Origin: Streptomyces dangxiongensis
GTDB taxonomy: Bacteria; Actinomycetota; Actinomycetes; Streptomycetales; Streptomycetaceae
Direction: 5' to 3'
NCBI RefSeq assembly: GCF_003675325.1
Contig: NZ_CP033073.1
Location: 7,626,001-7,690,000 of the forward strand
DNA length: 64,000 nucleotides
In this document: positions 33,551 to 56,223 of the stretch, one piece after another
Position numbering within the stretch: position 1 is the stretch's first letter
How the letters are laid out: each line of letters begins with the position of its first letter
Made by a program: the position numbers and the translations under genes
Notes under the pieces: model-generated
Told to the model about the DNA's origin: nothing
The model's database searches: none
The model's input: the letters and a program-made list of their open reading frames with translations, nothing else

Positions 33551-33554
<4 letters not shown>

Positions 33555-39500: not shown

Positions 39501-40780
39501 TCGAACCCGGGCACGGTCCGCTGGACGTCGCGGCGCTGCGCGAGCAGCTCCGGCGGCGGGTGCCCGACCACCTGGTGCCCGGTGCCTGGGTGGAGCTGCC
39601 CGCCCTTCCGCTCACCGCCAACGGGAAGATCGACCGCGCCGCGCTGCCCGAGCCCGCCGGGCCGGCCGTGACATCGGCCTTCACCGCCCCGCGCACGCCC
39701 GCCGAGCGGGCCGTGGCCGAGGTCTGGGCCGAGGTGCTCGGTGTGGAGCGGGTCGGTGTCGACGACGACTTCCACGTCCTCGGCGGGCACTCGCTGGCCG
39801 TGCTGCGGATCACCGCCCTGCTGCGCGAGCGGCACGGCATCGAGCTGACCGTCCGTTCGTTCCTGGAGCACCCCACCGTGGCCGGGCTCGCCGGGCTCGC
39901 CGGGGCCGCCGAGGCCGGCGCACCGGCGGCCGAGTCGCTGGTCTGGCTGCGGCGCGAGGGCACCCGGCCGCCGCTGTTCTGCGTGCACCCCGGCGGCGGC
40001 AGTGCCCACTGGTACCGCCCACTGGTGAAGTACCTCCACCCCGACCAGCCGGTCGCGGCCTTCGCCTGGCCCGGCCTGCAGGCCGAGCACGGCCCCGTCC
40101 CCTCGACGGAGCGGATGGCGGAGCGCTACCTGGCCGAGCTGCGGGCCGAGGCACCGCACGGCCCGTACCGGCTGTTCGGCTGGTGCGGCGGCAGCGGCAT
40201 CGCCAGCGAGCTGGCGCACCGGCTCACCGCCGAGGGCGAGGAGGTCACCTTCATCCTGCTCGACCCCGGGCTGGACAACCACGAGCGGCACGAACTGTGG
40301 CAGGAGTTCCGGCTGATCGAGAGCTGCGTGGCGAAACTGGAGGAGCTGGCCGCCGCGCCGCCCGGGCAGGACACCTCGGTGCTCCGGACGGAGGCCCTGG
40401 CGCTGCTCGAACACCTGGTGGACGACGTCGACCCCGAGGTGGGGATCGTGCTGCCGGAGCACGGCGCCGGTGAGGTCTGGCTGCCCTCCGCGAAGATGTG
40501 GCGGGAGGTCATGGAGCTGTGCCTGACCTACCGGCACCGTCCGTACCCGGGCCGGCTGCACCTGATCGCCAGTGACGAACTGGCGGACGGCAAGCACGAG
40601 GTGGCCTCCGGGCAGTCGTTCCCCGACTACCTCGCCCGCTGGCGCGAGCTGACCGGGGACGTCACGCTGCACCGGATCACCGGTGACCACTTCGGTGTGA
40701 TGAAGCCGCCGCACCTCGGCCGGCTCGCCGAGGCCGTCACCGGCATCCTCGGCGGCGGGAGCGAGCAGGGCACCGGCTGA
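33551..40780 (+). CDS. Nonribosomal peptide synthetase, C-A-T-C-A-T-TE, with two apparent frameshifts in the second A domain
   Basis: About 2410 residues if repaired. C3 (HHIACDG near 170), A3 (TSGSTGRPKG near 642), carrier (GGDSMRAI near 1024), C4 (CHAILDG near 1235, first His is Cys), A4 (TSGSTGRPKG near 1687), carrier (GGHSLAVL near 2077), thioesterase (GWCGGSG, nucleophile Cys near 2212). A3 residues D-V-W-H-M-S-L-V-D match serine; A4 residues D-A-L-W-L-G-G-T-F resemble valine codes. The reading frame breaks near 38777-38782 (an extra CG in GCGCGC) and returns near 39065-39071 (an extra G). The segment between encodes normal A-domain sequence in another frame. Two compensating sequence errors are likeliest; a true pseudogene is possible. 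Confidence 0.9.
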
Positions 40781-41419: not shown

Positions 41420-43717
41420 TCAGTCGGTGACGGCGACGAGGCGTAGTTCGGAGGTGTAGCGCCGTCCCCGGTCGTCGGTGAGCCAGGCCTGTTCGGGGGT
41501 GGGGAGCATCTCGGTGACGGTGAGCCGGGCGTCGGGGTCCTTGCGGGCGAGGCGGCGGGCGGCCTTGGCGAGGATGTTGACGTAGACGGGGCTGTCGAAG
41601 TCGACGAAGAACGGGCGTGGTTCGGTGGGGGAGACGACGAAGACGAAGCGGGGCAGTTCGTGGGTGTCCCGCCACTGCCGGGCCCGGACGAACCGCCGGG
41701 CCTCGCTCTTGTCGTCGGCGAAGGCCAGCGCGGAACCGGCGAACCGCCAGGTCTCCCGGGCCACCGTCATCCGGTCGATGGTGACCCGGGGGGAGTGGTC
41801 GGCCTCCGGCAGGAGCCGGAACCGGTCCGTCACCAGCGTGGTCAGCACATGGGCGAAGACCTCGATCACCGGGAACACCGCGCCGTCGGGCAGTACCACG
41901 CAGAGCCGGTCGTCGCGGTGTTCCACCACGGCGTCGGCGCTCGGCACGGTCCGGTCGCGGTACGGGTCCGCCGTGTTGTCGAGGAGGGCGACCTGGTAGT
42001 CCTCCGGCCGTACCAGCGCGTGCCGGATCCGGGCGGACAGCCGGGACTTGTGCTCCTTCGGCAGCAGCGGCATCAGCCGTGGCGCCGGGTGGTCCCGGTC
42101 GGTCCGGTCGAAGAGTTCCCGGGGATCGGGATGCTGGTTGACGAACAGTTCGTTCCCCAGCGTGTTGGCGGCCAGGTGGAGTTCGCCGAGGGTGAGGTGG
42201 AACTCGCCGCGCTCCACGGCGGCGGCGTCCTCCGCGGCGATCATCACATCCGGGCTGACGTACCGCGCCGCGGTCCAGCCCGGCGCGGTGGCCGGCCCGA
42301 AGACCTCCGCCACCCGGTCGGCGATGTCCGCGCCGACGACCGTGACCCGGCGCAACCCCTGCGACGCCGGAAGGATCCGCTGCCAGCGGCGCTCGAACTC
42401 CGCCTGGAGTTCGGCGGCGTCGCAGACCGCGGCCCCGTGGAGGACCGGCATGCAGGCGAACCAGAAGGCGGCGAGGTCCACCGGCCGTCCGGGCCCGGTG
42501 CCGGCGCGCAGCCGCTCGTACACCTCGGTGACGCGCTCCGCCACGCGGGCGGCCAGGGCGGAGGCGAGCCAGGCGGTTGCGGACATCAGCAGGTCGAGCG
42601 GGGCGAGCGCGGCCAGCACGTGGCTGCCGAGCGTCACCCGGGCGGCGCGGCGGCTGTCCGAGTAGACCACGGCACGGCCGGGGGCCGTGGTGGTGCTCTT
42701 CTCGCGTTTGGCGGCCGCGTCGGTCACCTGTCGGAACATCTCCTCGACGCCGGTGAGAGCCGCGACCAGGCGCTCGGGATCCTCGGCTGCCGCCCGGACG
42801 GCCTCGACCGCGCCCTGCAGTTCGTCCAGCCGGGCGAGGGCGGCGGCGCGCAGGGCCGGCTCGCCGATCCGCTCCAGGCAGGTGCGCAGCCGGCGGTCGG
42901 GCCGGATGTCGGCGGGTACGTCGAGCCGCCAGGTGATCCAGCGCCGTCGGACCAGTTCGTCGAGCAGGGCGGCCACGTCCGTTCCCGGGCCGACCTCCTC
43001 CTGGAGGGCCGGGACGGAACGGGTGCCGTCGCACAGGCGCAGCACCCGGAGCGTCTCCGGCGGCACCGGGTGCGGCGGCCTGGCGGGGGTCCGTACGGCG
43101 TTCTCCTCCAACCGTACGTACGGCACCCGGCGGGGTGCCGTCCAGGCGTGCACCGCCGGGTCGGCGTCGATCTCCCGGGCCAGGGCGTCGACCGACCAAC
43201 TGGACCAGAAGACCTCCGAGGACGCGGTCAGTCCCGTGCCCGGCTCGACGGTCATGCCGGGCCGGGAGGGGGCCAAGGTGCCCCAGCCGACCGGTCCGAA
43301 GAAGCCGATGGTGTCGTTCTTGACGCAGAACCGCTGCCAGTAGTGCGCGACGAGTTCCTCGCGCTGACGCTGCTTGAACGTCCGGCCCCCGGCCGCCGGT
43401 GACCAGTTGAGGAACGGCCGGATCGCCGAGTCGAGCACCCCCCGGTTCTGCCAGGCGACCGCTGCCCGGAACGGTCCGGAGGCGGCGATCTCCTGAGCGC
43501 TCGCGGCCGCCCGCACGGCGGCCTGTGTGAACTCCTCCTCGAAGGCCTTCCAGGCCGCGCCGGACAGCGCGTCCCTCGGCCCGAACTTGTCCGCGGCGGC
43601 GGCCAGGCCCTCCGGCGCGAGCCGGAGCACCCCGTCCGCCGGGAACCCCGCGCCGCGCACCGCGACCTGGTCCCACAGCCGCCAGCGACCGCTCAGAGAG
43701 ACGGATCCCTCGTGCAT
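41420..43717 (-). CDS. LanB-like glutamylation-domain protein 1 (short, no elimination domain)
   Basis: A 765-residue protein of the lantibiotic dehydratase N-terminal family. Conserved blocks are AVAWQNRGVLDS, AHYWQRFCVKNDTIGFFGPVGWG near residue 150, ALVRPEDYQVAL and PRFVFVVSPTEPRPFFVDFDSPVY near the end. Full LanB enzymes have about 1000 residues with a C-terminal elimination domain, which is absent here. That places it with split LanBs and with PEARLs (TglB, AmmB), which use aminoacyl-tRNA to modify or extend peptides. The last 111 residues are identical, even in DNA, to LanB-like 2. It follows the free carrier gene by 11 bp and ends the operon. The substrate is unknown: carrier-bound residue, peptide or the LanM precursor. 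Confidence 0.8.
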   Translation of the reverse strand: MHEGSVSLSGRWRLWDQVAVRGAGFPADGVLRLAPEGLAAAADKFGPRDALSGAAWKAFEEEFTQAAVRAAASAQEIAASGPFRAAVAWQNRGVLDSAIRPFLNWSPAAGGRTFKQRQREELVAHYWQRFCVKNDTIGFFGPVGWGTLAPSRPGMTVEPGTGLTASSEVFWSSWSVDALAREIDADPAVHAWTAPRRVPYVRLEENAVRTPARPPHPVPPETLRVLRLCDGTRSVPALQEEVGPGTDVAALLDELVRRRWITWRLDVPADIRPDRRLRTCLERIGEPALRAAALARLDELQGAVEAVRAAAEDPERLVAALTGVEEMFRQVTDAAAKREKSTTTAPGRAVVYSDSRRAARVTLGSHVLAALAPLDLLMSATAWLASALAARVAERVTEVYERLRAGTGPGRPVDLAAFWFACMPVLHGAAVCDAAELQAEFERRWQRILPASQGLRRVTVVGADIADRVAEVFGPATAPGWTAARYVSPDVMIAAEDAAAVERGEFHLTLGELHLAANTLGNELFVNQHPDPRELFDRTDRDHPAPRLMPLLPKEHKSRLSARIRHALVRPEDYQVALLDNTADPYRDRTVPSADAVVEHRDDRLCVVLPDGAVFPVIEVFAHVLTTLVTDRFRLLPEADHSPRVTIDRMTVARETWRFAGSALAFADDKSEARRFVRARQWRDTHELPRFVFVVSPTEPRPFFVDFDSPVYVNILAKAARRLARKDPDARLTVTEMLPTPEQAWLTDDRGRRYTSELRLVAVTD
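41429..41761. repeat. 333-bp perfect direct repeat, copy 1
   Basis: By eye this stretch is identical base for base to 46627-46959 (offset 5198). It encodes the C-terminal part of LanB-like 1. Outside it the two genes are clearly diverged. Confidence 0.9.
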
Positions 43718-43728
43718 CCCCGCGCCCC

Positions 43729-43989
43729 CTAGGCCGACGCGCGAGCGAGGGAGAGGTCGGCGACGACGACCTCCGCCAGCTCGGCCGGGGACGGGTAGGT
43801 GAAGACCAGGGCGACGGCGATCTCGGCGTCGAGCAGTTCCTGGAGACGGTCGACGATCTGGAAGGCGGCGAGCGAGTCGCCGCCCGCCTCGAAGAAGTCG
43901 CTCGCGGAGTCGAGGGTGTCGTCGCCGAGCGTCTCGCGGTAGTAGCCGGTGATCAGCCCGGTGAGTTCGGCGGTGTCGATGAGGTTCAT
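43729..43989 (-). CDS. Free-standing peptidyl carrier protein
   Basis: An 86-residue carrier with the phosphopantetheine site FFEAGGDSLAAF (Ser near 46). GAAGGAC precedes the ATG. It lies between the dehydratase-like gene and LanB-like 1 in the minus-strand operon. It is the natural partner of the free adenylation domain encoded two genes upstream, so a single residue may be held here for modification, possibly by the LanB-like proteins, before transfer to the NRPS line. Confidence 0.92.
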   Translation of the reverse strand: MNLIDTAELTGLITGYYRETLGDDTLDSASDFFEAGGDSLAAFQIVDRLQELLDAEIAVALVFTYPSPAELAEVVVADLSLARASA

Positions 43990-44126
43990 GGCCTGTCCTT
44001 CTTCGAGTGGTGTGGGTGTGGACGAGGGAGCGGGGCGGAGCGGCGCGGTCGATGGGTCGACCGGTCGATGGGGCGATGGGCCGTGGGGCTGGTCGGTCCG
44101 CCGGCGGCCGGTCAGCGACCGGCCGG

Positions 44127-45074
44127 TCAGCGGCCGGTGCCGGCGTGCGCGGACCGGGCGGCGGCCAGGGCCACGGCGCTGTTGCCGCCGGAGACGACGA
44201 CGGCGCTGCGGCCGGGGAGCCCGAGCCGGAGAGCGCCGGCCAGGGCGGCGGCGCCGCTCGGCTCGGCCGGAATGCCGGCGCGGTGCAGCAGGGTCATCGC
44301 GCGGAGCACGGCCCGGTCACCGACACCGATCAGCTCGTCGACCCGGTGCCGGACGATCGGTAGGATCACCTCGCCGGGCCGCTGACCGCGCAGCCCGTCC
44401 GCCACCGAGTCGCCGGGCGGCAGTTCCACCGGGCGGCCGGCGGCGACCGAGCGGGCGTAGCGGCGGGTCCGGTCGGGTTCCACGCCGATGATCCGGACCG
44501 CGCTGGAGAGGTGGGCGGCGGCGAGACAGACACCGGCCAGCAGGCCGCCACCGCCCACCGGCACGAAGATCGCGTCGAGGTCGGGGGCGTCCCGGAACAC
44601 CTCCAGAGCGACGGTGCCCTGGCCTGCCACCACGAGTTCGTGGTCGGAGGAGGGCACCAGCACGGCCCTGGTGCGGGCGGCGAGGTCCTTGGCGTACCGG
44701 TCGCGGTCGGCCACCCCGCCGGACACCCGGACGACCCGGCCGCCGAGCGCCCGGATGGCCCGTTCCTTGGCCTCGGCCGCGCCGGCCGCCATCACCACGG
44801 TGACCCGGACGCCGAGAGTGCGGCCGAGCGTGGCCACCGCGATGCCGTGGTTGCCGGAGGAGCCGGCGACGACCTCGTCGGCGCCGAGCGCGAGCATCGC
44901 GTTGGCCGCGCCGCGGAGCTTGAACGACCCGCTGTGCTGGAGGTGTTCGGCCTTGAGCAGCAGTCCGGGCAGACAGTCGCGACGCAGCAGCGGGGTGTGC
45001 CGGACGTGCGGGGCGATCCGGTCGGCGGCGGCCGGCACGGCGGCCGGTCCGATCCGGGTGTCGGCGGCCGTCAT
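44127..45074 (-). CDS. Threonine/serine dehydratase-like PLP enzyme
   Basis: A 315-residue fold-type II PLP enzyme: HTPLLRRDCLPG, PLP lysine in HSGSFKLRGAANAM near 52, SSGNHGIAVA, and phosphate loop VPVGGGGLLAG. It resembles catabolic threonine dehydratase, serine racemase and the ectoine-utilisation enzyme EutB. Possible roles are deamination or racemisation of Ser, Thr or a hydroxylated or diamino acid used by the pathway. The ATG overlaps the stop of the adenylation-domain gene (ATGA). A 137-bp gap separates it from the carrier gene. Confidence 0.87.
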   Translation of the reverse strand: MTAADTRIGPAAVPAAADRIAPHVRHTPLLRRDCLPGLLLKAEHLQHSGSFKLRGAANAMLALGADEVVAGSSGNHGIAVATLGRTLGVRVTVVMAAGAAEAKERAIRALGGRVVRVSGGVADRDRYAKDLAARTRAVLVPSSDHELVVAGQGTVALEVFRDAPDLDAIFVPVGGGGLLAGVCLAAAHLSSAVRIIGVEPDRTRRYARSVAAGRPVELPPGDSVADGLRGQRPGEVILPIVRHRVDELIGVGDRAVLRAMTLLHRAGIPAEPSGAAALAGALRLGLPGRSAVVVSGGNSAVALAAARSAHAGTGR

Positions 45075-46597
45075 GACACGGGCTCCGGCGCGCGGGCGCG
45101 CAGTGCCCGACGGTCGGCCTTGCCGCTGTGCGTGACGGGCAGGCGCTCCAGCCGGGTGAACCGCCTGGGCATCATGTGCGGCGGCAGGGTACGGGCCAGG
45201 TGCGCGCGCAACTGGGCGTCGGTGGTGCCGTCGAGCCGGCCGGTGACATGGGCGCCGAGCCAGGTCCGGCCCCGGTCGTCGGTCTCGGCGGTCACGACGG
45301 CGCCGGTGACCTCGGGGTGGGCGAGCAGGGCACCCTCGATCTCGGCCGGGTCCACCCGATGGCCGCGGATCTTGACCTGGCGGTCGGCCCGGCCGAGGTA
45401 CTCCAGGGTGCCGTCGGGGGCGCGCCGGGCCAGGTCGCCGGTCCGGTACAGCCGCGCGCCGGGCGGTCCGTACGGATCGGGCGGGAACCGGTCGGCTGTC
45501 AGGCCGGGCTGCCCGCCGTAGCCGCGGGCGACGCCCGCGCCGCCGATGTGCACCTCGCCGGTCCACCCGTCCGGGACTTCGCGCCCCCGCGGGTCGAGCA
45601 GGCGTACGACGGTGCCGTCGACGGCGGTGCCGACGGTGTCGGCGGAGGTGTCGGGGACGGCCGGCACGTCGTATCGGGTGGAGGTCATGGTGCACTCGCT
45701 GGGCCCGTACTGGTTGACCAGCCGGCCGCCGATCAGAGCGCGACCGCCGGCGGCGAGGAAGGGGCGCAGCGACTCGCCGCTGGAGCAGACCAGGCGCAGG
45801 GTGCGCAGTCGTGCGGCCGCGCGGGGAGACTGCGCGAGGAAGCTCAGGAAGGAGGGGGTGGTGCTGAGGACGCTGTCCACGCCGTACTCGGCGACGGTGT
45901 CGGCGAAGGCCTCGGCGCCGAGCAGCCGCGCCCGTTCGACCAGGACGACGCTCCCGCCGGCGGCGAGCGGCGCGAAGGTGTCCCGGATCGACGCGTCGTA
46001 GCCGGGCGGGGCGAGCTGGAGGGTGACGGTGCCGGGACCGAGGGCGTTGTCGCGGACGACGGCGCGGAGGTACCTGTCCAGGCCGCCGTGCTCGATCAGG
46101 ACGGGATTGGGGGCGCCGGTGGAGCCCGAGGTGTGGCTGACGTAGGCGAGCGAACGCGGATGGGGGGCGGGGAACGCGGTCGGCGGCGGGCCGTCGGCCG
46201 GGAGCCGGTCCAGCAGGACGGCGGGCGCGTCGAGCAGTGGTCCGAGGCGGCCGGCGAGGGCGGCGGAGGTGAGCAGGCGGGCCGCGCCGCCGCCGGCGGC
46301 GAGCGCGGCGAGCCGCCGGTCGGGCAGGCCGGTGTCGAGGGTGAGGAACGCCCCGCCGGCCCGGACGACCGCGGCGGTCGCGACCACGGCGTCGGCGCCG
46401 GGGGGCAGGGCCACCGCGCAGACCCGCTCCGGTCCCACGCCGTGGGCGGCGAGGTGGGCGGCGAGCCGGTCGATCCGGGCGGCGAGTTCGCCGTAGCACG
46501 TCGGGCCGTCGGCGGTCAGCAGGGCGGGGGAGTGCGGTGCGCGGTCGGCATGCGCGCGGATGTCCTCGACGAAGCTCGTCCGTGCGGGGGCGGTCAT
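45071..46597 (-). CDS. Free-standing adenylation domain with altered P-loop
   Basis: A 508-residue amino-acid adenylating enzyme: HTSGSTGAPN near residue 155, NQYGPSECT, YRTGDLARR, GRADRQVKIRGHRVDPAEIE and SGKADRR. In the P-loop the usual PK is PN, so the lysine is lost, yet the A10 lysine is kept. Hand-read pocket residues are D-A-R-S-C-S-Q-M-T, unlike any code I know; Arg in the third place could bind an acidic substrate. It should load the free carrier at 43729-43989. Both ends overlap neighbours by ATGA, tying it tightly to LanB-like 2 and the dehydratase. Confidence 0.88.
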   Translation of the reverse strand: MTAPARTSFVEDIRAHADRAPHSPALLTADGPTCYGELAARIDRLAAHLAAHGVGPERVCAVALPPGADAVVATAAVVRAGGAFLTLDTGLPDRRLAALAAGGGAARLLTSAALAGRLGPLLDAPAVLLDRLPADGPPPTAFPAPHPRSLAYVSHTSGSTGAPNPVLIEHGGLDRYLRAVVRDNALGPGTVTLQLAPPGYDASIRDTFAPLAAGGSVVLVERARLLGAEAFADTVAEYGVDSVLSTTPSFLSFLAQSPRAAARLRTLRLVCSSGESLRPFLAAGGRALIGGRLVNQYGPSECTMTSTRYDVPAVPDTSADTVGTAVDGTVVRLLDPRGREVPDGWTGEVHIGGAGVARGYGGQPGLTADRFPPDPYGPPGARLYRTGDLARRAPDGTLEYLGRADRQVKIRGHRVDPAEIEGALLAHPEVTGAVVTAETDDRGRTWLGAHVTGRLDGTTDAQLRAHLARTLPPHMMPRRFTRLERLPVTHSGKADRRALRARAPEPVS

Positions 46598-48924
46598 GCC
46601 GGCTCCCCGGGGGCGGTGCTCCGGTCGACGGCGACGAGGCGTAGTTCGGAGGTGTAGCGCCGTCCCCGGTCGTCGGTGAGCCAGGCCTGTTCGGGGGTGG
46701 GGAGCATCTCGGTGACGGTGAGCCGGGCGTCGGGGTCCTTGCGGGCGAGGCGGCGGGCGGCCTTGGCGAGGATGTTGACGTAGACGGGGCTGTCGAAGTC
46801 GACGAAGAACGGGCGTGGTTCGGTGGGGGAGACGACGAAGACGAAGCGGGGCAGTTCGTGGGTGTCCCGCCACTGCCGGGCCCGGACGAACCGCCGGGCC
46901 TCGCTCTTGTCGTCGGCGAAGGCCAGCGCGGAACCGGCGAACCGCCAGGTCTCCCGGGCGACGACGGTGGAGTCGATGGTGATCCGGGGCGAGTGGTCGC
47001 CGTCCGGGCGCAGGGTGAAGCGGTCCATCACACGGTTGGTGAGCGCGTGGCAGAACACGTCGAGCAGGTCGAAGACCGAGCCGTCGGGCAGCACGGCCGA
47101 CAGCCGGCCCGCGCGCTCCTCCACCCGCACGTCGCCGGAGCGGACCGTACGTGGGCGGTGCGGATCGGCACTGTGGTCGCTGAGTGCGACGTAGTGGTCC
47201 TCCGGGCGTTCCAACGCCTGCCGGCTGCGGGCGGACCACTTCAGCGGAAGCTCCTTGGGCAGCATGGGGAGCAGCCGTGGGCCGGGGAAGTCGCGGGTGG
47301 TCTCGTCGATGAGTTGCGCGCGGTCGGGGTGCTGGTGGACGAAGAGCGACTGGCCGATGGTGTTCATCGCGACGTGCAGCTCGCCGATGACGAGCTGGAA
47401 CTCGCCGCGTTCGACGGCGCCCAGGTCCTCGGCGATGATCATGAGGTCGGGGCTGACGTACCGGCTGAGCGACCAGCCGCGCCCGCCCGCGGGGAACGCC
47501 TCGCGAACCTGGTCGGCGATGGCGGCGCTGGAGAGCGAGACCCGCCTGGCGCCGGCCGGGGCGTCGATGATCCGCGCCCAGCGCTCGCGCAGCTCGGCCT
47601 GGATGCGCTCGATGTCGGTGAAGGACTCCGGGTGCGGGGCGGGCAGGCAGGCGAACCAGAGCGAGCCGAGGTCGACCCGCTCGTCCCGCTCCCGCAGCCG
47701 GAGGTAGGCCTCGCGGATGCGCGCGCCGACGGCCTCGGCGTACCGGTCGGTCATCCAGCGGGCGGCGGTCAGGCACAGCTCCAGCGGCGCGAGCTGCTCC
47801 AGGACGGCGGTGCCCACGGTCGCCGTGGCGGACCGGCGGCAGTCGGAGTACACGAGGGCGCGGTTGGGTGCGGTCCGGGCCCCCTTCTCGCGGACCGCCG
47901 AGACCTCGGTGATCTCGGCGAAGCCGGCCTCCAGGGCGGCGAGCGCGGCGGTCAGCTCCTCGGGGTCGGTGCCGGCCCGCTCGACCCGGTCGCGGCCGGT
48001 CTCCAGCACCGCCAGCTTGGCCAGGGCGGGCTCCCGTACCGCCGGGTCGCCGATGCGTTCCAGGAGGGTGCGCAGTTCCCGCTCGGGGTAGGTCCCGGCG
48101 GGCACGTCGAGCTTCCAGCCGATCAGGCGGTGGGAGACCAGCCGTTCCAGGGCCTCGGTCACCTCACCGGCCGGCAGGTCCCGGCCCAGCTCCCGGGCGG
48201 CCAGGTCGGTGATCTCGGCGGGGGTCCGGCGCCCGTCGCACAGGCGCAGGACGGTGAGGGCGGGTTCGGGGACCGGCTGCGGGGGGCGGCCGGGCAGGCG
48301 CACCGTGCCGTCGGTCACCCGGACGAACGGGACCTGGCGCGGCGGTGTCCACCAGCGCACCCGCGGGTCACGGTCGATGGCCTTCGCTAGGGCGTCCATC
48401 GACCAGCTTGAGAAGTAGACCCGGGACTCGGCGACCAAGCCGGTGCCGGGGTCCACCTCGACGCCGCGCCGGTGGGTGTCGAAGGTGCCCCAGCCGACCG
48501 GGCCGAAGAACCCGATGGTGTCGTTCTTGACGCAGAACCGCTGCCAGTAGTGGGCGACCAGCTCCTCGCGCTGGCGGGGCATGCTGGTGCGGCTCTCCGC
48601 GGACGGCGTCCAGTCGAGGAACGGCTTGATGCCGGTGCGGAGCACCGCGCGGTTCTGCCAGGCGACCGCGGCCCGGAACGGCGCCGAGGCGGCGATCTCC
48701 TGGAGGGCGCGCGCGGTCCGCACCGCGGCGGCGGCGAAGGCCTCCTCGAACGCCTCCCAGTCCGCCCCCGCCGGCACCTCCCCGGGGGCGAACTTGTCCG
48801 CGGCCGAGGCCAGGCCCTCCGGGGCCAGCCGGAGTACCCCCGCGGCGGGGAAGCCGGGTCCGCGGAGTGCGAAGTGCGTCCACAGGCGCCACCCGTCGCC
48901 GGGCATGCGTATGGTGTCGGACAT
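46594..48924 (-). CDS. LanB-like glutamylation-domain protein 2 (short, no elimination domain)
   Basis: A 776-residue paralogue of the protein encoded at 41420-43717, with the same blocks (AVAWQNRAVLRTG, YWQRFCVKNDTIGFFGPVGWG, ALERPEDHYVAL) and the same lack of a SpaB_C-type elimination domain. It diverges over most of its length but shares an exactly identical C-terminal 111 residues. GGGAGGT precedes the ATG at 48924. The stop overlaps the adenylation-domain start, so both are made together. Two such proteins in one operon suggest two successive tRNA-dependent steps, or a working and a guiding subunit. Confidence 0.8.
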   Translation of the reverse strand: MSDTIRMPGDGWRLWTHFALRGPGFPAAGVLRLAPEGLASAADKFAPGEVPAGADWEAFEEAFAAAAVRTARALQEIAASAPFRAAVAWQNRAVLRTGIKPFLDWTPSAESRTSMPRQREELVAHYWQRFCVKNDTIGFFGPVGWGTFDTHRRGVEVDPGTGLVAESRVYFSSWSMDALAKAIDRDPRVRWWTPPRQVPFVRVTDGTVRLPGRPPQPVPEPALTVLRLCDGRRTPAEITDLAARELGRDLPAGEVTEALERLVSHRLIGWKLDVPAGTYPERELRTLLERIGDPAVREPALAKLAVLETGRDRVERAGTDPEELTAALAALEAGFAEITEVSAVREKGARTAPNRALVYSDCRRSATATVGTAVLEQLAPLELCLTAARWMTDRYAEAVGARIREAYLRLRERDERVDLGSLWFACLPAPHPESFTDIERIQAELRERWARIIDAPAGARRVSLSSAAIADQVREAFPAGGRGWSLSRYVSPDLMIIAEDLGAVERGEFQLVIGELHVAMNTIGQSLFVHQHPDRAQLIDETTRDFPGPRLLPMLPKELPLKWSARSRQALERPEDHYVALSDHSADPHRPRTVRSGDVRVEERAGRLSAVLPDGSVFDLLDVFCHALTNRVMDRFTLRPDGDHSPRITIDSTVVARETWRFAGSALAFADDKSEARRFVRARQWRDTHELPRFVFVVSPTEPRPFFVDFDSPVYVNILAKAARRLARKDPDARLTVTEMLPTPEQAWLTDDRGRRYTSELRLVAVDRSTAPGEPA
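46627..46959. repeat. 333-bp perfect direct repeat, copy 2
   Basis: Identical to 41429-41761. It encodes the C-terminal part of LanB-like 2. Same orientation, so recombination between copies would delete the carrier, dehydratase and adenylation genes. Confidence 0.9.
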
Positions 48925-48976
48925 TGCTGTGCTACCTCCCTGGGAAATGTGCGCCGGGCCGGCGGCCGGCCGGTCG

Positions 48977-49924
48977 TCAGGCCGGCTCTGCCGGGATGCC
49001 GCCGAGGCACCACTCCAGGACGGCGCGGGCGCTGTGGTACTTGTTCTCGGCCTGTTCGAACGCGATGCTCGCGGGGCCGTCCAGGACCTCGCCGGTCACC
49101 TCGTCGCCGCGGTGCGCGGGCAGGTCGTGCATGAAGACGGCGCCGGGGCAGGCCGCCAGCACGGCGGCGTCCACCTGGAACGGGGCGAAGACGCGCCGCC
49201 AGTCCGGGTCGTACTTGGTCGTGCCGGTCGTCTGCCAGCGCGTGGTGTAGACGATGTCGGCCTCCGGCAGGTCGGCCATGTCGTGCCGTTCCTCGACCAG
49301 CGCGCCGGACTCCTTGGCGTGGCCGCGGGCCCGGTCGAGGAAATCGAGGTCGAGTCCGTAGCCGGCCGGGGTCCGCAGGTGCAGCTCGGTGCCGGGGAAC
49401 CGGCTGAGGGCCAGGGCGAGCGCCGAGGCGGTGTTGTTGCCCTCGCCGGCGTACAGCACCCGCAGCCCCTCGATCCGCCCGAAGCGGCCGAGCATCGTGG
49501 TGAGGTCGGTGAGGGCCTGGGTGGGGTGCTCGGCGGCGCTCATCGCGTTCACCACGGCCATCCGTCGCTGGGCGGCGTAGGCGCGCAGCTCCTCGGTGCT
49601 GCCGGCGGTACGCGCCACCAGCACGTCGAGCATGCCGGAGAGCACCTCGCCGGTGTCCTCGGAACTCTCCCCGGTGTTCTCCTGGAGGTCGCCGGGACCG
49701 TAGGTGATCAGCCGGCCGCCCAGCCGGAGCGCGCCGGCCGAGAACGCGGTCCGGGTGCGGGTGGACGTCTTGCGGAACAGCACGCCGACGACGGCGTCGG
49801 CGAGCGGTCGGGCGCCGTCGCACTCGCCGGCGGCGTACTGGGCGCCGCGGTGCACGAGCCAGCGCAGCTCCCGGTCGGTCAGGTCGTCGACGGAGATCAG
49901 GTGGTGGCGGTCGGGTCGAGGCAT
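48977..49924 (-). CDS. Ornithine-carbamoyltransferase-like enzyme with altered substrate loops
   Basis: A 315-residue transcarbamoylase. The carbamoyl-phosphate motif is KTSTRTRTAF near residue 54, and EHPTQALTDL is conserved. The amino-acid-side motifs differ from ornithine enzymes: HCLP is HDLP (in VFMHDLPAHRG) and the SMG loop is WQTTG. The C-terminal AENKYHSARAVL is intact. It is likely active on another amine; 2,3-diaminopropionate or 2,4-diaminobutyrate, both predicted products of this locus, are good candidates, giving a ureido amino acid as in viomycin-type pathways. GAGGAGGAA precedes the ATG. It lies 28 bp after the aminotransferase. Confidence 0.87.
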   Translation of the reverse strand: MPRPDRHHLISVDDLTDRELRWLVHRGAQYAAGECDGARPLADAVVGVLFRKTSTRTRTAFSAGALRLGGRLITYGPGDLQENTGESSEDTGEVLSGMLDVLVARTAGSTEELRAYAAQRRMAVVNAMSAAEHPTQALTDLTTMLGRFGRIEGLRVLYAGEGNNTASALALALSRFPGTELHLRTPAGYGLDLDFLDRARGHAKESGALVEERHDMADLPEADIVYTTRWQTTGTTKYDPDWRRVFAPFQVDAAVLAACPGAVFMHDLPAHRGDEVTGEVLDGPASIAFEQAENKYHSARAVLEWCLGGIPAEPA

Positions 49925-49952
49925 CGGACGTTCCTCCTCGGGTGGCCGGCCG

Positions 49953-51224
49953 TCAGTTCGCGCGCAGGGCGTCGTGCAGGATGCCGAGCCCCTCGTCGAG
50001 CAGGCCGGGTGTGACGGTCAGCGGGGGCATCACCTTGAGGACCTCGTCGTACCGGCCGCAGCGCTCGACGATCAGGCCGTGCTCGAAGGCGTGGCGCTGG
50101 ACGCGCTCGGCCCGGTCGGCACCGCCGGCCCGGGCGGTGTCGATGCCGAGCACCATTCCCCGGCCGCGCAGGCCGAGGTCGGGGTCCAGCGCACCCACGT
50201 CGGCCCGGAACCGGGTGAGGCGCTGCGCGCCCTGCCGAAGGCCGGTCAGGAAGTCGTCCTGCTGCCACAGTTCGCACGCCGCGGTGGCCGCGACGAAGGC
50301 GAGCTGGTTGCCGCGGAACGTGCCGGTGTGCTCGCCGGGCTGCCAGAGGTCCAGCTCACGGCGGAACAGGGTGAGCGAGAGCGGCAGCCCGTAGCCGCTG
50401 AGGGACTTGGAGACGGTGACGATGTCCGGCACGATCCCGGATTCCTCGAAGCCGAAGAACGTGCCGGTACGACCGCAGCCGGTCTGGATCTCGTCCAGGA
50501 TCAGCAGCACCCCGTACCGTTCGGTGACCTCGCGCAGCCGGCGCAGCCACTCCCGGCTCGCCGGGTGGACGCCGCCCTCCATCTGCACCGGTTCGACGAC
50601 GACCGCCGCGGGCAGTTCGGTGCCGGAGGACGGGTCGGCCCACAGCCGCTCGATCAGGCCGATCGAGTCGAACGGGCCCAGCGGGCCGTCCTCGAAGGGG
50701 ATGAAGGTCGTGTCCCCGCCGGCGACCGCGCCCGCGCGGCGGGCGCGGCGGCTGCCGGTGATCTCCAGCGAACCGCGCGACATACCGTGGTAGGCGCCGG
50801 TGAAGGCCGTCAGGCCGGTGCGACCGGTCGCCCGGCGGGCCAGCTTGAGGGCGGCCTCCACCGCGTCGGTCCCGGTCGGGCCGGTGAACTGCACCTTGTA
50901 GTCGAGGCCGCGGGGCCGCAGCACGACCTCGGTGAACCGGGTGAGGAAGTCGCGCTTGGCGACGGTGTGCAGGTCGAGGCCGTGCATGAGGCCGTCGTCG
51001 GAGAGGTAGTCGACGATCCGCCGCTTGACGGCGTCGTGGTTGTGCCCGTAGTTCAGGCTGCCGGCGCCGCAGAAGAAGTCGATGAAGGTCCGGCCGTCGT
51101 CGGTGTGCAGCAGCGCGCCCTTGGCGCGCTCGAACACCGCGGGGAAGGTGCGGCAGTACATGCGCACCTCGGACTCGATCTTCTCGAAGACGGAGGTGTC
51201 GGTGGTCACGGGGGCGAGGGTCAT
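49953..51224 (-). CDS. L-2,4-diaminobutyrate:2-oxoglutarate aminotransferase (EctB-like)
   Basis: A 423-residue class III PLP aminotransferase: [18 protein letters not shown] at the N-terminus, [51 protein letters not shown] and PLP lysine in [11 protein letters not shown]. These match EctB and siderophore diaminobutyrate aminotransferases, which convert aspartate semialdehyde to diaminobutyrate. No ectA is present, so the product should go to the peptide rather than to ectoine. AAGGA precedes the ATG; the NRPS module gene ends 30 bp upstream. Confidence 0.92.
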
Positions 51225-51254
51225 GGCGGTCCTTGGGCGAGAGGGCGGTTTCGG

Positions 51255-54200
51255 TCAGCGGCCGGCGGTCGTGCGGTCGCCGCGCGGGCGGGCGGTCAGC
51301 CGCGGCAGGGGGCCGTCCGCGGCCGACCGCGGGTAGCCGTCGAGGGCCGCGGCGAGGGCGGCGACGGTGGGGTGGTCGAACAGTGCCCGCACGGGGACGT
51401 CCACCCCGAGGGCGGCGCGCAGTCGCACGGACACCCGGGTGGCGAGCAGCGAGTGCCCGCCGAGCAGGAAGAAGTCGTCGTGGGCGCCGATCCCGGTGGC
51501 GCCCAGGACCTCCTCCCAGACCTCGGCCACGGACCGTTCCCGGGCGGTGCGCGGAGCGGTGGCCGGGCCGGCCGCCTGCGGCGCCGGCACCGGCAGCGCG
51601 TGGCGGTCGACCTTCCCGCTGACCGCGGTCGGGATGGCGTCCAGCAGGACGAACGCGGCCGGGACCAGGTGGTGGGGCAGGGAGTCGAGCAGCTCGGCGC
51701 GCAGGGCGTCGGGCGTGGGAGGGTTCCCGGCGTCCTCCGCGACCAGGTACGCGGTGAGCTGCTGGCCGCCGCCGGCGTCCGGCGTCGGGTGCACCACGGC
51801 GGCGCGGATGCCGTCGAGGGCGAGCAACGCGGCCTCGATCTCGCCCGGTTCGATCCGGTGGCCGCGGATCTTCACCTGGTGGTCGCTGCGGCCCAGGATC
51901 TCCAGCGAGCCGTCCGGGCGGAGCCTGCCGAGGTCGCCGGTGGCATAGAGCCGGCCGCCGGGCGCGGTGGCGTGCGGGTCGGGGAGGAAGACGCCGGCGG
52001 TCTGGGCAGGCCGCCCCCGGTAGCCCCAGGCGAGGCCTTCGCCGCCGATGCAGACCTGCCCGGTGCCGCCCTCGGCCACCGGCTCCAGCCGGTCGTCGAG
52101 CACCCGGACGGTGGTGTTCTCCAGCGCGCTCCACCGCCGTACCTGCCCGTCGGCACCGTGCCGGGCGACGCTGGTCCAGATCGTGGCCTCGGTCGGCCCG
52201 TAGAGGTCCAGGACCGGAGCGCCACCGGCGGCGAGCGCCGCGGCCAGGTCGGTGTGGAGCTTCTCGCCGCCGGACAGCACGGTCAGGCCGGGATCGGGCG
52301 TCCAGCCGGTGTCGACCAGCATCCGCAGCATCGACGGGGTGGCCTGGATCAGGTCCGGTCGGGCCTCGCCGATCAGACGGATCAGGCGCTCCGGGTCGCG
52401 GGCCTGCTCGCTGTCGGCCAGCACCAGCCGGGCGCCGGTCAGCAGCGGCAGGCACAGCTCCAGCATCGAGGGGTCGAAGGAGGCGGTGGTGACACCGAGG
52501 ACGGTGGCCTGCGGCCCCAGCTCCAGCCGGGCCGTCATCGCGTGCAGGAAGTTGGTCAGGGCACGGTGCGGGATCTGCACGCCCTTGGGTGTGCCGGTCG
52601 AGCCGGACGTGTGGAAGACGTACGCGAGGTCGTCCGGGCCGGTGGTCCGGTCGAGCCGGTGCGCCGGTCCGGCCGGCGGCAGGGCGCCGTCGAGCAACAG
52701 GGTCCTCGCCTCCGTGCCGGCCACGCGTTCGGCCAGCGCGCCGGTGGTGACGACCACGGCGGCCCTGGTGTCCTCGATCAGGTGGCCGAGCCGCCGCGCG
52801 GGATGCAGGGGGTCGAGCGGGACGTAGGCGGCGTCCGCCTTGAGGACGGCGAGCAGGGCGACGAGGAGCCCGGTGCCGCGCTCCAGCAGGACGCCCACCC
52901 GGGTGCCGCGGCCGACGCCGAGGGCGCGCAGCCGGTGCGCCAGCCCGTCGGCCCGCTCGTCGAGCCCGGCGTAGCTCAGCTCGCCGTCCCCGGAGCGGAC
53001 GGCGGTGGCGTCCGGGGTGCGGCGCACCTGCTGCTCGAACAGGTCGGTGACGGTCCGCGGGGGTACGGCGCGGGCGCTGCCGAGGCCGAGCGCGAGCCGG
53101 CGGCGGCGTTCGCCGTCGGGCAGCAGTTCGAGTTCGGCGGTGACGCCGACCAGCGGCTCGTCCGGGGCGGCGAGCATGCCGCGCAGCAGCCGGACGTAGT
53201 CCTCCGTGAGGCGGGCGGCCGTCGCGGGCGCGAACAGCGCGGTGGCGTACTGCAGGCGCAGCCCCAGGCTGCCGTCCGGGCGTCCGAGCAGGTCGAGCGC
53301 CAGATCGAACGGTGTCCCGGCGACCGGGGTGGGCACCAGTTCGACCGCCAGGCCGGGCAGGTCGGGCGGCTCGGCCTGGGAGTCGAGGGTCAGGAAGGAG
53401 ACCTGGAAGAGGGGGTTGCGGCTGAGGTCGCGGGGCGGGGCCAGCTCGCCGACCACGCGTTCGAACGGTGTGTCGGCGTGTGTGAGGTCGGCCAGGGACG
53501 CGTCCCGGACCCGGTCCACCAGCTCGCCGAAGCTCGGCCGGCCGGACAGGTCGGCGCGCAGGACCACGGTGTTGACGAAGGGGCCGATGAGGTCGCGGGC
53601 GGCGGCATGGCCGCGGCCCGCGACCGGGGTGCCGACGGCGAAGTCGCTCTGTCCGCTGTACCGGCCAAGCTGGGCCTGGAATGCCGCGAGCAGCACCATG
53701 AACCGGGTGGCGCGGTGGGACCGGGCCAGCCGGTCGGCCTGTGCCACCAGGTCGGCCGGGAGGGTGCACCGGGTCACGGCGGCGGTGCCGTCGAACTCGG
53801 CGGGGCGGGGCCGGTCGGTCGGCAGGTCCAGTGGCGGCAGGCCCGCCAGCCGCGTGCGCCAGTGGTCGAGGCTGCGGGCGAGCCGGGGGCCGGCCGACCG
53901 CTCGCGCTGCCGGGCCGCGAGGTCGGCGTACTGCAGGGGAAGCTCCGGTAGCCCCTGGGAGACACCGGCGGTCCTGGCGCGATAGGCCGCGGCCAGATCG
54001 CGGGTGAAGATGTTCCAGGAGGAGAAGTCGAAGGCGATGTGGTGCACCACGACGGCCAGCAGGTGGTCGTCGGGCCCGAGCCGCGCCAGGGTGGCCCGCA
54101 GCGGCGGCGCGGTCGACAGGTCGACCGGCCCGTGCACCGCGCGCCCGAGGACCGCGGCGATGCCGGCCTCCCCGGCGGCGGGCGCCTCGACCGTGTCCAG

Positions 54201-54446
54201 CGGAACCTCCACCCGCGGGACCACGTATGCCCGCGGCTCGCCGTCGGCGGCCGAGTACCGGGTGCGCAGCACCTCGTGCCGGTCGACCACGTCGGCCAGG
54301 GCGCCGGCGAGGGCCTCGGCGTCGAGGTCGCCGCGCAGGCGCAGCGCCAGCGGAAGCAGATGGTCCGCCGTGCCGGGTCGCAGTTGGTCGAGGAACCACA
54401 GCCGTTGCTGCGAGAAGGATGTCGTCCGGCCGTCACCGCGGTCCAC
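51255..54446 (-). CDS. Nonribosomal peptide synthetase, single module C-A-T
   Basis: A 1063-residue module. C5 (about 5-440) has HHIAFDFSSW near 136, with Phe in place of the usual Gly of HHxxxDG. A5 (460-960) has TSGSTGTPKG near 611 and hand-read pocket residues D-P-L-Q-L-G-L-I-W, close to glycine codes (DILQLGLIW). The carrier site is GGHSLLATR near 993. No thioesterase. The GTG at 54446 is chosen because GGAGGTGA lies just upstream; the longer open frame has no homology. It heads the minus-strand operon with the Dab, carbamoyl and LanB-like genes, and must cooperate in trans with the two plus-strand NRPS proteins. Confidence 0.92.
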   Translation of the reverse strand: MDRGDGRTTSFSQQRLWFLDQLRPGTADHLLPLALRLRGDLDAEALAGALADVVDRHEVLRTRYSAADGEPRAYVVPRVEVPLDTVEAPAAGEAGIAAVLGRAVHGPVDLSTAPPLRATLARLGPDDHLLAVVVHHIAFDFSSWNIFTRDLAAAYRARTAGVSQGLPELPLQYADLAARQRERSAGPRLARSLDHWRTRLAGLPPLDLPTDRPRPAEFDGTAAVTRCTLPADLVAQADRLARSHRATRFMVLLAAFQAQLGRYSGQSDFAVGTPVAGRGHAAARDLIGPFVNTVVLRADLSGRPSFGELVDRVRDASLADLTHADTPFERVVGELAPPRDLSRNPLFQVSFLTLDSQAEPPDLPGLAVELVPTPVAGTPFDLALDLLGRPDGSLGLRLQYATALFAPATAARLTEDYVRLLRGMLAAPDEPLVGVTAELELLPDGERRRRLALGLGSARAVPPRTVTDLFEQQVRRTPDATAVRSGDGELSYAGLDERADGLAHRLRALGVGRGTRVGVLLERGTGLLVALLAVLKADAAYVPLDPLHPARRLGHLIEDTRAAVVVTTGALAERVAGTEARTLLLDGALPPAGPAHRLDRTTGPDDLAYVFHTSGSTGTPKGVQIPHRALTNFLHAMTARLELGPQATVLGVTTASFDPSMLELCLPLLTGARLVLADSEQARDPERLIRLIGEARPDLIQATPSMLRMLVDTGWTPDPGLTVLSGGEKLHTDLAAALAAGGAPVLDLYGPTEATIWTSVARHGADGQVRRWSALENTTVRVLDDRLEPVAEGGTGQVCIGGEGLAWGYRGRPAQTAGVFLPDPHATAPGGRLYATGDLGRLRPDGSLEILGRSDHQVKIRGHRIEPGEIEAALLALDGIRAAVVHPTPDAGGGQQLTAYLVAEDAGNPPTPDALRAELLDSLPHHLVPAAFVLLDAIPTAVSGKVDRHALPVPAPQAAGPATAPRTARERSVAEVWEEVLGATGIGAHDDFFLLGGHSLLATRVSVRLRAALGVDVPVRALFDHPTVAALAAALDGYPRSAADGPLPRLTARPRGDRTTAGR

Positions 54447-54612: not shown

Positions 54613-55254
54613 TCAGATCAGCCCGGTGCGGACGCCGTGCGCCACCGCGTGGGCCCGGTTGCGGACCTGGAGGCGGGTCATCAGGTCGTACATGACGTTC
54701 TTCACGGTGTGCTGGGAGCAGGAGAGTTCACGGGCGATGGCCGCGTTGCCGTGCCCCTCGGCGACCAGCGTGAGCACCGTCGTCTGCCGGGCCGTCAGCG
54801 GCGAGCCGGGGGTGGGGTGCCGCCGCTCGGCGTCGTCGCCGCCCGCCTCGCCGAGGAGGCGGACCAGGACGCCGTAGGGCATCCGGCCCTCCCCGTACCG
54901 GGCGCTGTGGACGGCGGTGAGCAGACGCTCCGGGGTGGCCTCGGCGGAATGCAGCATGGCCACCGCCCCGGCCCGGACGGCCCGCCGCACTCCCGCGGCG
55001 GTGAAGATGTCGGCGACCAGCAGGAGGGGCCCGCCGCCGGGCTCCGGCCAGCCGTCGAGCGCCGCACCGGGCGTCCGCCCGGCGGCCACCCGGACGGCCC
55101 CGTCGGAGTGTACGGCCGCCAGCTCGATGCCGGCCCGGCGCAGGCCGGCGGCCACCGTGTCGCGGGCCGCCCCGCCCGCCGGGCCGAGGTGCACGCGCAG
55201 CGCGCCGTCGCGCCGCCCGGCCTCCGGCGCCGCTTCGAGGACGAGGGCGGTCAC
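54613..55254 (-). CDS. LuxR-type regulator with degenerate receiver
   Basis: A 213-residue protein. The C-terminal LuxR helix-turn-helix is LTARQTTVLTLVAEGHGNAAIARELSCSQHTVKNVMYDL. The N-terminal part has receiver-like spacing (LLLVADIF, AVRAGAVAMLHSAEATPERLL) but no clear phosphorylatable Asp pair. The GTG at 55254 overlaps the stop of the upstream LuxR gene. The two share the ending RNRAHAVA..RTGL, so they are a tandem duplicate that may act as a heterodimer on cluster 2 promoters. Confidence 0.87.
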   Translation of the reverse strand: MTALVLEAAPEAGRRDGALRVHLGPAGGAARDTVAAGLRRAGIELAAVHSDGAVRVAAGRTPGAALDGWPEPGGGPLLLVADIFTAAGVRRAVRAGAVAMLHSAEATPERLLTAVHSARYGEGRMPYGVLVRLLGEAGGDDAERRHPTPGSPLTARQTTVLTLVAEGHGNAAIARELSCSQHTVKNVMYDLMTRLQVRNRAHAVAHGVRTGLI

Positions 55255-55874: not shown

Positions 55875-56223
55875 GTGCACTCCTCGGTCAGCGTGCGACG
55901 AACCTCTCGGCGAGGAGTTTCGGCAACCCGTACGCCGCACCGCATGGGGTGCGATCACCCGCATTTCCGCACCCCGCCGGCCCCGCCCCGGGGCCGCACA
56001 CCGGCGGCCCGGCCACAGACGGCCGGGCACCGCCGGGCGGCACCGGCCGCCGGGAGCCCGGTGACGCGGAAGCGGCGCCGCCGTGGTCGCTCGGGGGCCC
56101 CGCCGCGCCGCCCGGCGGCGCAAAGGGGGGCGCGGCGGTGACGGCGACTGGGTAGTCCGCCGCGAAATGTACGGGTGCCCCTCCCCTGTACGGGCGGGTG
56201 ACGCCGCTGGAAGAGTGGCGGAT
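55875..56223. promoter_or_regulatory. Divergent promoter region between LuxR pair and lanM
   Basis: 349 bp, no gene. It holds a direct repeat TGTACGGG at 56168-56175 and 56187-56194 (19 bp apart) close to the lanM start. This is a possible activator site, without further support. The rest is GC-rich without clear promoter boxes. Confidence 0.35.

What the first reader, a model, noticed from the sequence alone, without database searches (positions are those of the whole stretch)
41420..54446. NRPS operon carrying two elimination-less LanB-like proteins with a free A domain, free carrier and dehydratase
One minus-strand operon combines an NRPS module, an EctB-like aminotransferase, a carbamoyltransferase, LanB-like 2, a free adenylation domain, a dehydratase-like enzyme, a free carrier and LanB-like 1. 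LanB glutamylation domains use aminoacyl-tRNA; short forms such as TglB and AmmB (PEARLs) add amino acids to peptide ends. Here the nearest partner is a carrier protein rather than a scaffold peptide. I infer a possible tRNA-dependent step on a carrier-bound residue (glutamylation, aminoacyl transfer or Ser/Thr activation). I know of no characterised pathway of this layout.
Basis: partly seen in the sequence, partly recalled or inferred. Interest (0 to 1): 0.9.

Follow-up and report, generated by a model that had tools for sequence, protein, structure and literature searches.

The report
Paired LanB-like amide ligases in NRPS cluster
A Streptomyces-type peptide gene cluster carries two proteins annotated as lantibiotic dehydratases that look instead like ATP-driven amide-bond makers, tied into a fixed five-gene set with a free adenylation enzyme and carrier protein that recurs across many actinomycetes.

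Summary
The genes are there as described: a minus-strand operon with NRPS C-A-T, EctB-like, carbamoyltransferase, LanB2, free A domain, PLP enzyme, free carrier and LanB1. LanB2-A-PALP-PCP-LanB1 is a collinear cassette, complete in 44 of 66 related loci. Both LanBs lack the elimination domain and keep invariant residues at spacings matching the ATP-grasp and tRNA-CCA sites of peptide-aminoacyl-tRNA ligases (PEARLs). The LanB2 model has the LanB fold plus a winged-helix (RRE-like) domain. Best reading: paired PEARL-like amide ligases in an NRPS pathway, not a split dehydratase. One NRPS-linked PEARL (SnaE, 2024) is published, so the kind is known; this paired cassette is a variant, and SnaE's ureido-domain partner is absent here. 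New: the cassette travels with a LanM-like synthetase, a conserved small peptide and a LAL regulator (37 of 37 cassette genomes searched have a LanM domain; within about 30 kb in 29). Most cassette-linked LanMs have lost their cyclase zinc cysteines; the window's copy has not. That unit also occurs without the cassette, so it may be regulatory. The substrates of A, PALP and both ligases remain unknown.

The parts
41420..43717 (-). LanB1: PEARL-like protein, 765 aa
   Evidence: PF04738 139 bits, no PF14028; LanB1 clade of 56 sequences
43729..43989 (-). Free peptidyl carrier protein, 86 aa, GGDSL serine motif
   Evidence: PF00550; GGDS in 55 of 55 loci with a hit
44127..45101 (-). Fold-type-II PLP enzyme (serine/threonine dehydratase-like), SFK lysine motif
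   Evidence: PF00291 241 bits; best NCBIfam threo-3-hydroxyaspartate ammonia-lyase, 221 bits under a 452 cut-off; SFK in 54 of 55 loci; start not fixed, the ATG lies inside this range
45071..46597 (-). Free adenylation domain; specificity letters DARSCSQMT
   Evidence: PF00501, PF13193; TIGR01733 346 bits; code pattern shared
46594..48924 (-). LanB2: PEARL-like protein, 776 aa
   Evidence: PF04738 190 bits; AF2 model pLDDT 87 matches TbtB, GodF, MibB, NisB; LanB2 clade of 58
41429..41728 (.). 3' segment of LanB1 identical to LanB2 at 46627-46926 (exact match of 333 bases in all): gene conversion
48977..49924 (-). Ornithine-carbamoyltransferase-like enzyme
   Evidence: PF00185, PF02729
49953..51224 (-). 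EctB-like diaminobutyrate aminotransferase
   Evidence: PRK09264 572 bits
51255..54602 (-). NRPS module C-A-T; A code by eye near Gly (known codes recalled)
   Evidence: letters
54613..55362 (-). LuxR-family regulator
   Evidence: PF00196; relatives at cassette loci
56083..59373 (+). LanM-like class II lanthipeptide synthetase (true start probably later)
   Evidence: TIGR03897 640 bits over a 304 cut-off; DUF4135 + LANC_like; motif table
59505..59711 (+). Conserved small peptide, 68 aa, with a purine-rich stretch before its ATG; candidate LanM precursor
59784..62690 (+). LAL-type large LuxR regulator
   Evidence: AAA_16 + GerE; beside LanM in related loci
22156..23241 (-). SbnB: 2,3-diaminopropionate synthesis
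   Evidence: TIGR03944 401 bits over a 327 cut-off
23163..24182 (-). SbnA: 2,3-diaminopropionate synthesis
   Evidence: TIGR03945 421 bits over a 350 cut-off
24340..25623 (-). MFS exporter
   Evidence: PF05977, PF07690
25657..25875 (-). MbtH-like protein
   Evidence: PF03621
26150..27100 (+). TauD-family dioxygenase
   Evidence: PF02668
27087..33554 (+). NRPS C-A-T-C-A-T
33551..40780 (+). NRPS C-A-T-C-A-T-TE, with two reading-phase changes around 38770-39050 in the window sequence

Best explanation
LanB1 and LanB2 are a pair of PEARL-like amide ligases inside an NRPS pathway, not a glutamyl-transferring dehydratase. Each would phosphorylate a carboxylate with ATP at an ATP-grasp-like site and let the amino group of an aminoacyl-tRNA attack it, making an amide bond outside the condensation-domain assembly line. 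The A domain loads one particular amino acid, probably the same in nearly all cassettes, onto the free PCP. The PLP enzyme makes or modifies that amino acid or a related one. I infer that one or both ligases act on the PCP-bound unit or on the NRPS product carrying it. Shown by sequence and model: gene content, cassette conservation, LanB-type fold, absence of the elimination domain, invariant putative ATP- and CCA-site residues, near-invariant A-domain code. Inferred: ATP/tRNA chemistry, the amino acids used, the carrier-bound substrate, the order of steps.
Confidence: 0.62

Rival explanations
1. Ordinary split LanB dehydratase: LanB1/LanB2 glutamylate Ser/Thr (on a lanthipeptide or on the carrier) and a separate elimination protein completes dehydration.
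For: PF04738 family and LanB fold; a SpaB_C protein exists 3.1 Mb away in this genome and PF14028 somewhere in 29 of 37 cassette genomes.
Against: No PF14028 anywhere in 8 of 37 cassette genomes; in the others the nearest one certainly on the cassette's contig is about 255 kb away (G166), and none could be closer than about 95 kb. No SpaB_C tblastn hit in the 66 loci. Glu-x-His and Glu-x-Arg present where canonical LanBs lack them. The distant SpaB_C sits beside its own full-length LanB.
Confidence: 0.07
2. The two ligases work on the LanM-linked ribosomal peptide: its C-terminus is a scaffold or core extended by aminoacyl-tRNA and then joined to the NRPS product, making a ribosomal-nonribosomal hybrid.
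Confidence: 0.15
3. For the LanM part: LanM + peptide + LAL is a regulatory module (a modified peptide signal and its sensor) that switches on the NRPS cluster and takes no part in the chemistry. This does not exclude the main explanation.
For: Peptide next to a LAL regulator in both cassette and control loci; control loci L182 and L186 have SARP-type regulators and, among nine control ORFs scanned, no NRPS domains.
Against: No direct evidence of signalling; the LAL could be plain pathway regulation; 30 of 36 cassette-linked LanMs lost cyclase zinc cysteines while 24 of 24 readable controls kept them, which suggests a changed role.
Confidence: 0.5
4. LanB1/LanB2 have lost catalysis and serve as carrier-binding or substrate-shuttling proteins.
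For: Very low sequence similarity to solved LanBs (no LanB hit in PDB by sequence).
Against: The putative active-site residues are invariant or nearly so in 114 sequences and the C-terminal part is more alike between the paralogs than the rest in 47 of 47 pairs.
Confidence: 0.05

Closest known systems
SnaE (threopeptin pathway, Stackebrandtia nassauensis), PMC11212132
   Same: PF04738 protein without elimination domain in an NRPS cluster, shown by gene omission to form an amide bond
   Different: Single enzyme, with a ureido-forming C domain that frees a carboxylate; here two enzymes, no ureido signature, and a free A domain, PCP and PLP enzyme as regular partners
PEARLs TglB, AmmB, BhaB (PMC12945691 section 9; PMC11962472 parts 1-3 of 6)
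   Same: Size class, no PF14028, invariant residues at matching spacing for ATP and tRNA-CCA
   Different: Those add residues to a ribosomal scaffold peptide; here the conserved neighbours are NRPS parts, and scaffold use is unproven
Split LanB glutamylation proteins TbtB (6ec7) and GodF (9jhq)
   Different: Those have a partner elimination protein in their pathway (recalled) and use Glu-tRNA without ATP (LanB/PEARL contrast in PMC11962472 part 1)
Livipeptin tRNA-utilising L/F transferase with C-minus NRPS (PMC10548850, passages seen)
   Same: tRNA-dependent amide bond proposed for a residue activated by an A-PCP protein
   Different: L/F-transferase family, unrelated to LanB (recalled)
Class II lanthipeptide synthetases LanM
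   Same: Neighbouring protein passes TIGR03897 (640 bits)
   Different: Linked to an NRPS/LanB cassette; most linked copies lost the zinc cysteines

Membership tests
PEARL (peptide aminoacyl-tRNA ligase) | PF04738 domain without PF14028, none in the gene neighbourhood | tested here: met
PEARL (peptide aminoacyl-tRNA ligase) | ATP-site residues (BhaB7 Asp558, Glu575, His577, Glu813, Arg815) | tested here: inconclusive
   Invariant or nearly invariant residues at matching spacing in 114 sequences; Glu-x-His and the second Arg absent from 18 canonical LanBs; no real PEARL sequence was available to align
PEARL (peptide aminoacyl-tRNA ligase) | tRNA-CCA residues (Tyr205, Arg208 in BhaB7) | tested here: inconclusive
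   Tyr126..Arg129 in 114 of 114, same spacing; canonical LanBs also have this Tyr..Arg, so it does not discriminate
PEARL (peptide aminoacyl-tRNA ligase) | ATP- and aminoacyl-tRNA-dependent amide formation | not testable with these tools
   needs protein
PEARL (peptide aminoacyl-tRNA ligase) | Ribosomal scaffold peptide as substrate | tested here: inconclusive
   A conserved 68-aa ORF exists but lies beside LanM
SnaE-type NRPS PEARL | Partner Curea domain with EHHxxHDG | tested here: not met
   0 of 86 C motifs in 39 loci, window included
Class I LanB dehydratase | Elimination domain PF14028, fused or as a partner gene | tested here: not met
Class I LanB dehydratase | R-x-TPFG glutamylation-domain motif (motif recalled) | tested here: not met
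   KNDTIGFFGP instead; seen in the canonical set, which was itself picked by TPFG
Class I LanB dehydratase | LanB fold | tested here: met
   PEARLs are described as relatives of LanB
LanM (window 56083-59373) | Family model and phosphotransfer motifs | tested here: met
   TIGR03897 640 bits; YKPR, DLHCEN, DVET; residue roles recalled
LanM (window 56083-59373) | Cyclase zinc cysteines WCxG and CHG (role recalled) | tested here: met
   WCSG and LCHGE in the window; 30 of 36 readable cassette-linked copies lost at least one

The most novel reading that the evidence does not exclude
The LanB-like pair takes aminoacyl-S-PCP (loaded by the free A domain) as amine donor or acyl acceptor where PEARLs use tRNA and a scaffold peptide, and the LanM-modified small ribosomal peptide is part of the same product: a carrier-protein-dependent ATP-grasp ligase system joining ribosomal and nonribosomal chemistry.
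Probability: 0.12. Interest if true: 0.92.

Novelty: new variant of a known kind. Interest (0 to 1): 0.63.

Why it matters
Around two thousand NRPS/PKS clusters carry 'lantibiotic dehydratases' (PMC11212132) and the only one I found characterised is SnaE. This cassette pins one widespread subset to regular partners (A, PCP, PLP enzyme) and residues, so the substrate question becomes testable with five genes. It also shows that, unlike the clusters described in that paper, where no precursor-peptide genes could be identified, this subset travels with a LanM and a conserved short peptide.

Tried and rejected
Split-LanB reading: rejected on PF14028 absence and residues. SnaE-like chain reversal: no Curea signature. 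Finding SnaE-type relatives through one Curea pattern: 8 of 394 class genomes had it, none with PF04738 nearby. Of six solitary PF04738 proteins from those genomes looked at (L209-L212, L214, L215), L211 and L212 have GEMH and ELR like LanB1/LanB2, L214 and L215 have KTSPF, and the script printed nothing for L209 and L210. Sequence searches of PDB with LanB2 and with its family profile found no LanB; structure search did. The LanC 'FAHG' histidine was considered as a sign of a dead cyclase and dropped, because controls vary there too. A first hhalign run failed on unoriented loci and was redone. My first scripts for A-domain codes were off: one search read positions 278/299/301 one or two columns wrong, and the tallies counted the window's own pieces and secondary hits; one search replaces them. 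The 18 canonical LanBs were picked by length and by containing TPFG, so they do not test that motif independently. A binomial figure rests on a guessed LanM density and is not used. Passages of PMC11855644 (dmxorosin) and PMC4705527 were seen; the first describes a class I lanthipeptide with split LanB, the second only mentions a lantibiotic dehydratase gene. Ten literature searches (three of them empty) listed no paper that I recognised as describing this cassette; most listed papers were seen as listings only, and the library holds open-licence PMC papers only. No tRNA gene and no Rfam family in the window.
Full report
WHAT IS THERE. The region 41420-54602 is a minus-strand operon. In transcription order: an NRPS C-A-T module (51255-54602), an EctB-like aminotransferase (49953-51224), a carbamoyltransferase (48977-49924), LanB2 (46594-48924), a free adenylation domain (45071-46597), a fold-type-II PLP enzyme of the serine/threonine dehydratase superfamily (44127-45101), a free carrier protein (43729-43989) and LanB1 (41420-43717). 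Both LanBs match only PF04738; no PF14028 is present. The surrounding cluster runs from SbnB/SbnA (diaminopropionate supply, over NCBIfam cut-offs), MFS and MbtH through a TauD-family enzyme and NRPS genes with four further C-A-T units and a thioesterase to a LanM-like protein, a small ORF and LuxR/LAL regulators.

A CONSERVED CASSETTE. A scan of the species-genome collection with the LanB family alignment A1 gave 162 relatives; the best were kept as 66 distinct loci. In 44 of the 66 the order LanB2-A-PALP-PCP-LanB1 is complete and collinear. Of the 22 others, 17 are loci cut short by a contig end (L069 and L070, described below, are among these 17). Five long loci differ: two Amycolatopsis loci (L040, L041) have LanB2-PALP-LanB1 and no free A or PCP, and L063, L068 and L072 lack LanB2 and PALP (L072 also shows no A hit). 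Eleven loci with both carbamoyltransferase and EctB hits form the window's type (L007, L008, L009, L015, L016, L018, L025, L045, L065, L069, L070); L040 and L041 have the carbamoyltransferase alone. An MbtH gene is found in 46 of 66 loci, and neighbouring NRPS genes differ between loci. One homolog of 120 listed fuses LanB2 to an A domain (P0099). Of 57 loci with a cassette A domain, 47 read DARS[A/V/C]SQMT in full at the pocket positions, 7 more read the same or nearly so with a position unread or changed, 2 differ (LAHIT, LSHIT endings) and 1 was unread (position numbering recalled). So the loaded residue is probably the same across different NRPSs. An Arg at position 239 is compatible with an acidic side chain, but that is inference. 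GGDS is kept in 55 of 55 PCPs and SFK in 54 of 55 PALPs.

WHY LIGASES RATHER THAN DEHYDRATASES. The 114 LanB proteins read from these loci (window's two included) split at the midpoint root into groups of 56 (LanB1) and 58 (LanB2), supports 1.0 and 0.96, with no locus holding two of one group; 46 loci and the window have both (tree from the first 640 reference columns to avoid the converted segment). The split is less clean at its base: members from L063, L068 and L072 are about equally far from both window copies, and in L069 the gene in the LanB2 position groups with LanB1. Over the 114, Tyr126, Arg129, Lys133, Asp493, Glu515, His517 and Arg657 are invariant; Phe696 is 112 of 112 readable, Arg704 111 of 112, Glu760 110 of 111, Arg762 111 of 111, Arg21 110 of 111. 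Papers on PEARLs name, for BhaB7, Arg34 (TglB Arg10), Tyr205/Arg208 for the tRNA CCA end, and Asp558, Glu575, His577, Arg715, Phe755, Lys763, Glu813 and Arg815 for ATP and carboxylate activation (PMC12945691 section 9; PMC11962472 part 3). The pairs Y-x-x-R, E-x-H, F-(7)-[KR] and E-x-R recur at the same internal spacing and in the same order. The Asp offset differs (17 against 22). This is a correspondence by spacing; I could not fetch a real PEARL sequence. Eighteen LanBs of 30 fetched loci, picked by length and TPFG from a search of 148 actinomycete-class genomes, lack the E-x-H and the second R (the profile alignment stops at residue 750, so the C-terminal comparison is by eye).

THE ELIMINATION DOMAIN. 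In this genome PF14028 occurs only about 3.1 Mb away, fused in an intact 1074-aa LanB and in a separate neighbouring frame. Of 37 cassette genomes searched (genomes of 37 of the 66 loci), 29 have PF14028 somewhere and 8 have none. Contig numbers, contig lengths and coordinates exclude any within about 95 kb of a cassette; the nearest certainly on the same contig is about 255 kb off. tblastn with SpaB_C parts finds nothing in the 66 loci. A split LanB is therefore very unlikely.

RELATION TO SNAE. SnaE forms an amide bond on an NRPS product after a ureido-forming C domain frees a carboxylate (PMC11212132, parts 1-3 of 6 read and passages searched). That paper counts around two thousand such clusters and notes that no precursor-peptide genes were identifiable. 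Here no C motif matches EHHxxHDG (0 of 86 in 39 loci including the window; NRPS genes beyond the fetched 10-kb flanks were not read), so the carboxylate must come from elsewhere: a side-chain carboxylate of the PCP-bound residue, a released peptide, or a scaffold. Livipeptin offers a precedent for a tRNA-dependent enzyme acting with an A-PCP protein (PMC10548850, passages).

THE LANM UNIT. The LanM-like protein 56083-59373 passes TIGR03897 (640 bits). All 37 cassette genomes searched have a DUF4135 domain, against 30 of 101 same-genus genomes (Fisher p 2e-15, ignoring relatedness, genus mix and that the 101 include cassette genomes). In eight it is not on that contig: L018, L022 (cassette near a contig end, LanM on a 7.9-kb contig), L023, L029, L040, L041, L065, L067. 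Of 27 same-genus genomes with a LanM, 10 have some LanB2 relative at E <= 1e-20. Five have a full-length pair; these include all four whose LanM lost the zinc cysteines (two of the four are the genomes of L011 and L020). Two more (G039, G253) show two part-length genes at contig ends and one (G211) two short pieces, so they may hold a broken-up pair with a zinc-intact LanM elsewhere; G236 and G261 have single distant relatives. Of 36 cassette-linked LanMs readable at both sites (one, L167, on the separate contig of L022's genome), 6 keep both zinc-cysteine motifs (the window, L045, L072, L140, L160, L164), 1 keeps one, 29 keep neither; 24 of 24 readable controls keep both, some of them from genomes that also hold LanB-family genes (6 linked and 2 control rows unreadable, 3 not extracted; the four Cys-less copies of the genus sample were set apart as cassette type). 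The phosphotransfer motifs are kept in all rows.

THE SMALL PEPTIDE. Between LanM and the LAL regulator lies a 68-aa ORF (59505-59711). Its iterated profile finds 31 copies at E below 1e-15 in the loci then held, the window's included, all from cassette genomes (control LanM loci reached only 1.5 kb beyond the domain then), and two more in later loci. The core reads GRN-ACARARALAGMVLTSGIVITLSSxDTSVSAP with 0-4 variable end residues in the Streptomyces groups. Relatives L176 (L015), L180 (L045) and L072 have divergent versions ending near TTCCPP, together with zinc-intact LanMs. But 10 of 10 control LanM loci of 14 kb, with no LanB hit in them, also have a LAL relative (42-46% identity) and a short ORF with a similar [DEH]-P-[AV]-G motif (by pattern; profile E 0.007-1.3 in nine). 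Nine ORFs scanned around three controls showed sugar-metabolism and SARP-type genes and no NRPS. So the unit occurs beyond the cassette and may be regulatory; whether it supplies chemistry is open.

HOW IT MOST LIKELY WORKS. A conserved amino acid is made or altered by the PLP enzyme, loaded by the A domain onto the PCP, and coupled through one or two ATP-driven, probably aminoacyl-tRNA-using amide ligations to give a unit that the NRPS takes up or finishes. My odds: ligases not dehydratases 0.8; ATP and aminoacyl-tRNA used 0.65; carrier-bound substrate 0.45; LanM unit functionally tied to the cluster 0.75, of which regulatory about two thirds.

GENE CONVERSION. The compared 111 C-terminal residues of LanB1 and LanB2 are identical in the window and in L016, 97% in L008, 91% and 85% in the two Amycolatopsis loci. 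In all 47 pairs this part is more alike than the first 640 columns. It holds the putative adenine and Glu-x-Arg residues, consistent with the two enzymes sharing that half-site.

Noticed in passing
window 56083-62690 and L181-L190: LanM + short peptide with a D/E/H-P-A-G motif + LAL regulator recurs with and without the NRPS/LanB cassette; some control peptides end in PWTTFTVPM or PYTTFTVPL with no cysteine in that end. May be a modified-peptide signal module.
   Followed up: partly
window 38770-39050: The last A domain of the large NRPS changes reading phase twice; relatives L008 and L016 read both flanking parts in one frame at matching distance. Sequencing error or damage cannot be told apart here.
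   Followed up: partly
window 8183-16737: A separate set of genes: AMP-binding enzyme, acyl-CoA dehydrogenase, transglutaminase-like, chorismatase FkbO/Hyg5-like, class II DAHP synthase, luciferase-like monooxygenase.
   Followed up: no
G000:C2:4510209-4515193 (L001, L005, L006): Intact canonical LanB with a second SpaB_C frame next to it, elsewhere in the same genome.
   Followed up: no
L211, L212: Solitary PF04738 proteins with GEMH and TELR, like LanB1/LanB2, in genomes that also hold a Curea motif elsewhere; a second solitary class (L100, L101, L214, L215) has KTSPF and lacks those residues.
   Followed up: partly
L040, L041: Amycolatopsis clusters keep carbamoyltransferase, LanB2, PALP, LanB1 and SbnB but no free A or PCP, so the missing functions may be built into their NRPS.
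   Followed up: no
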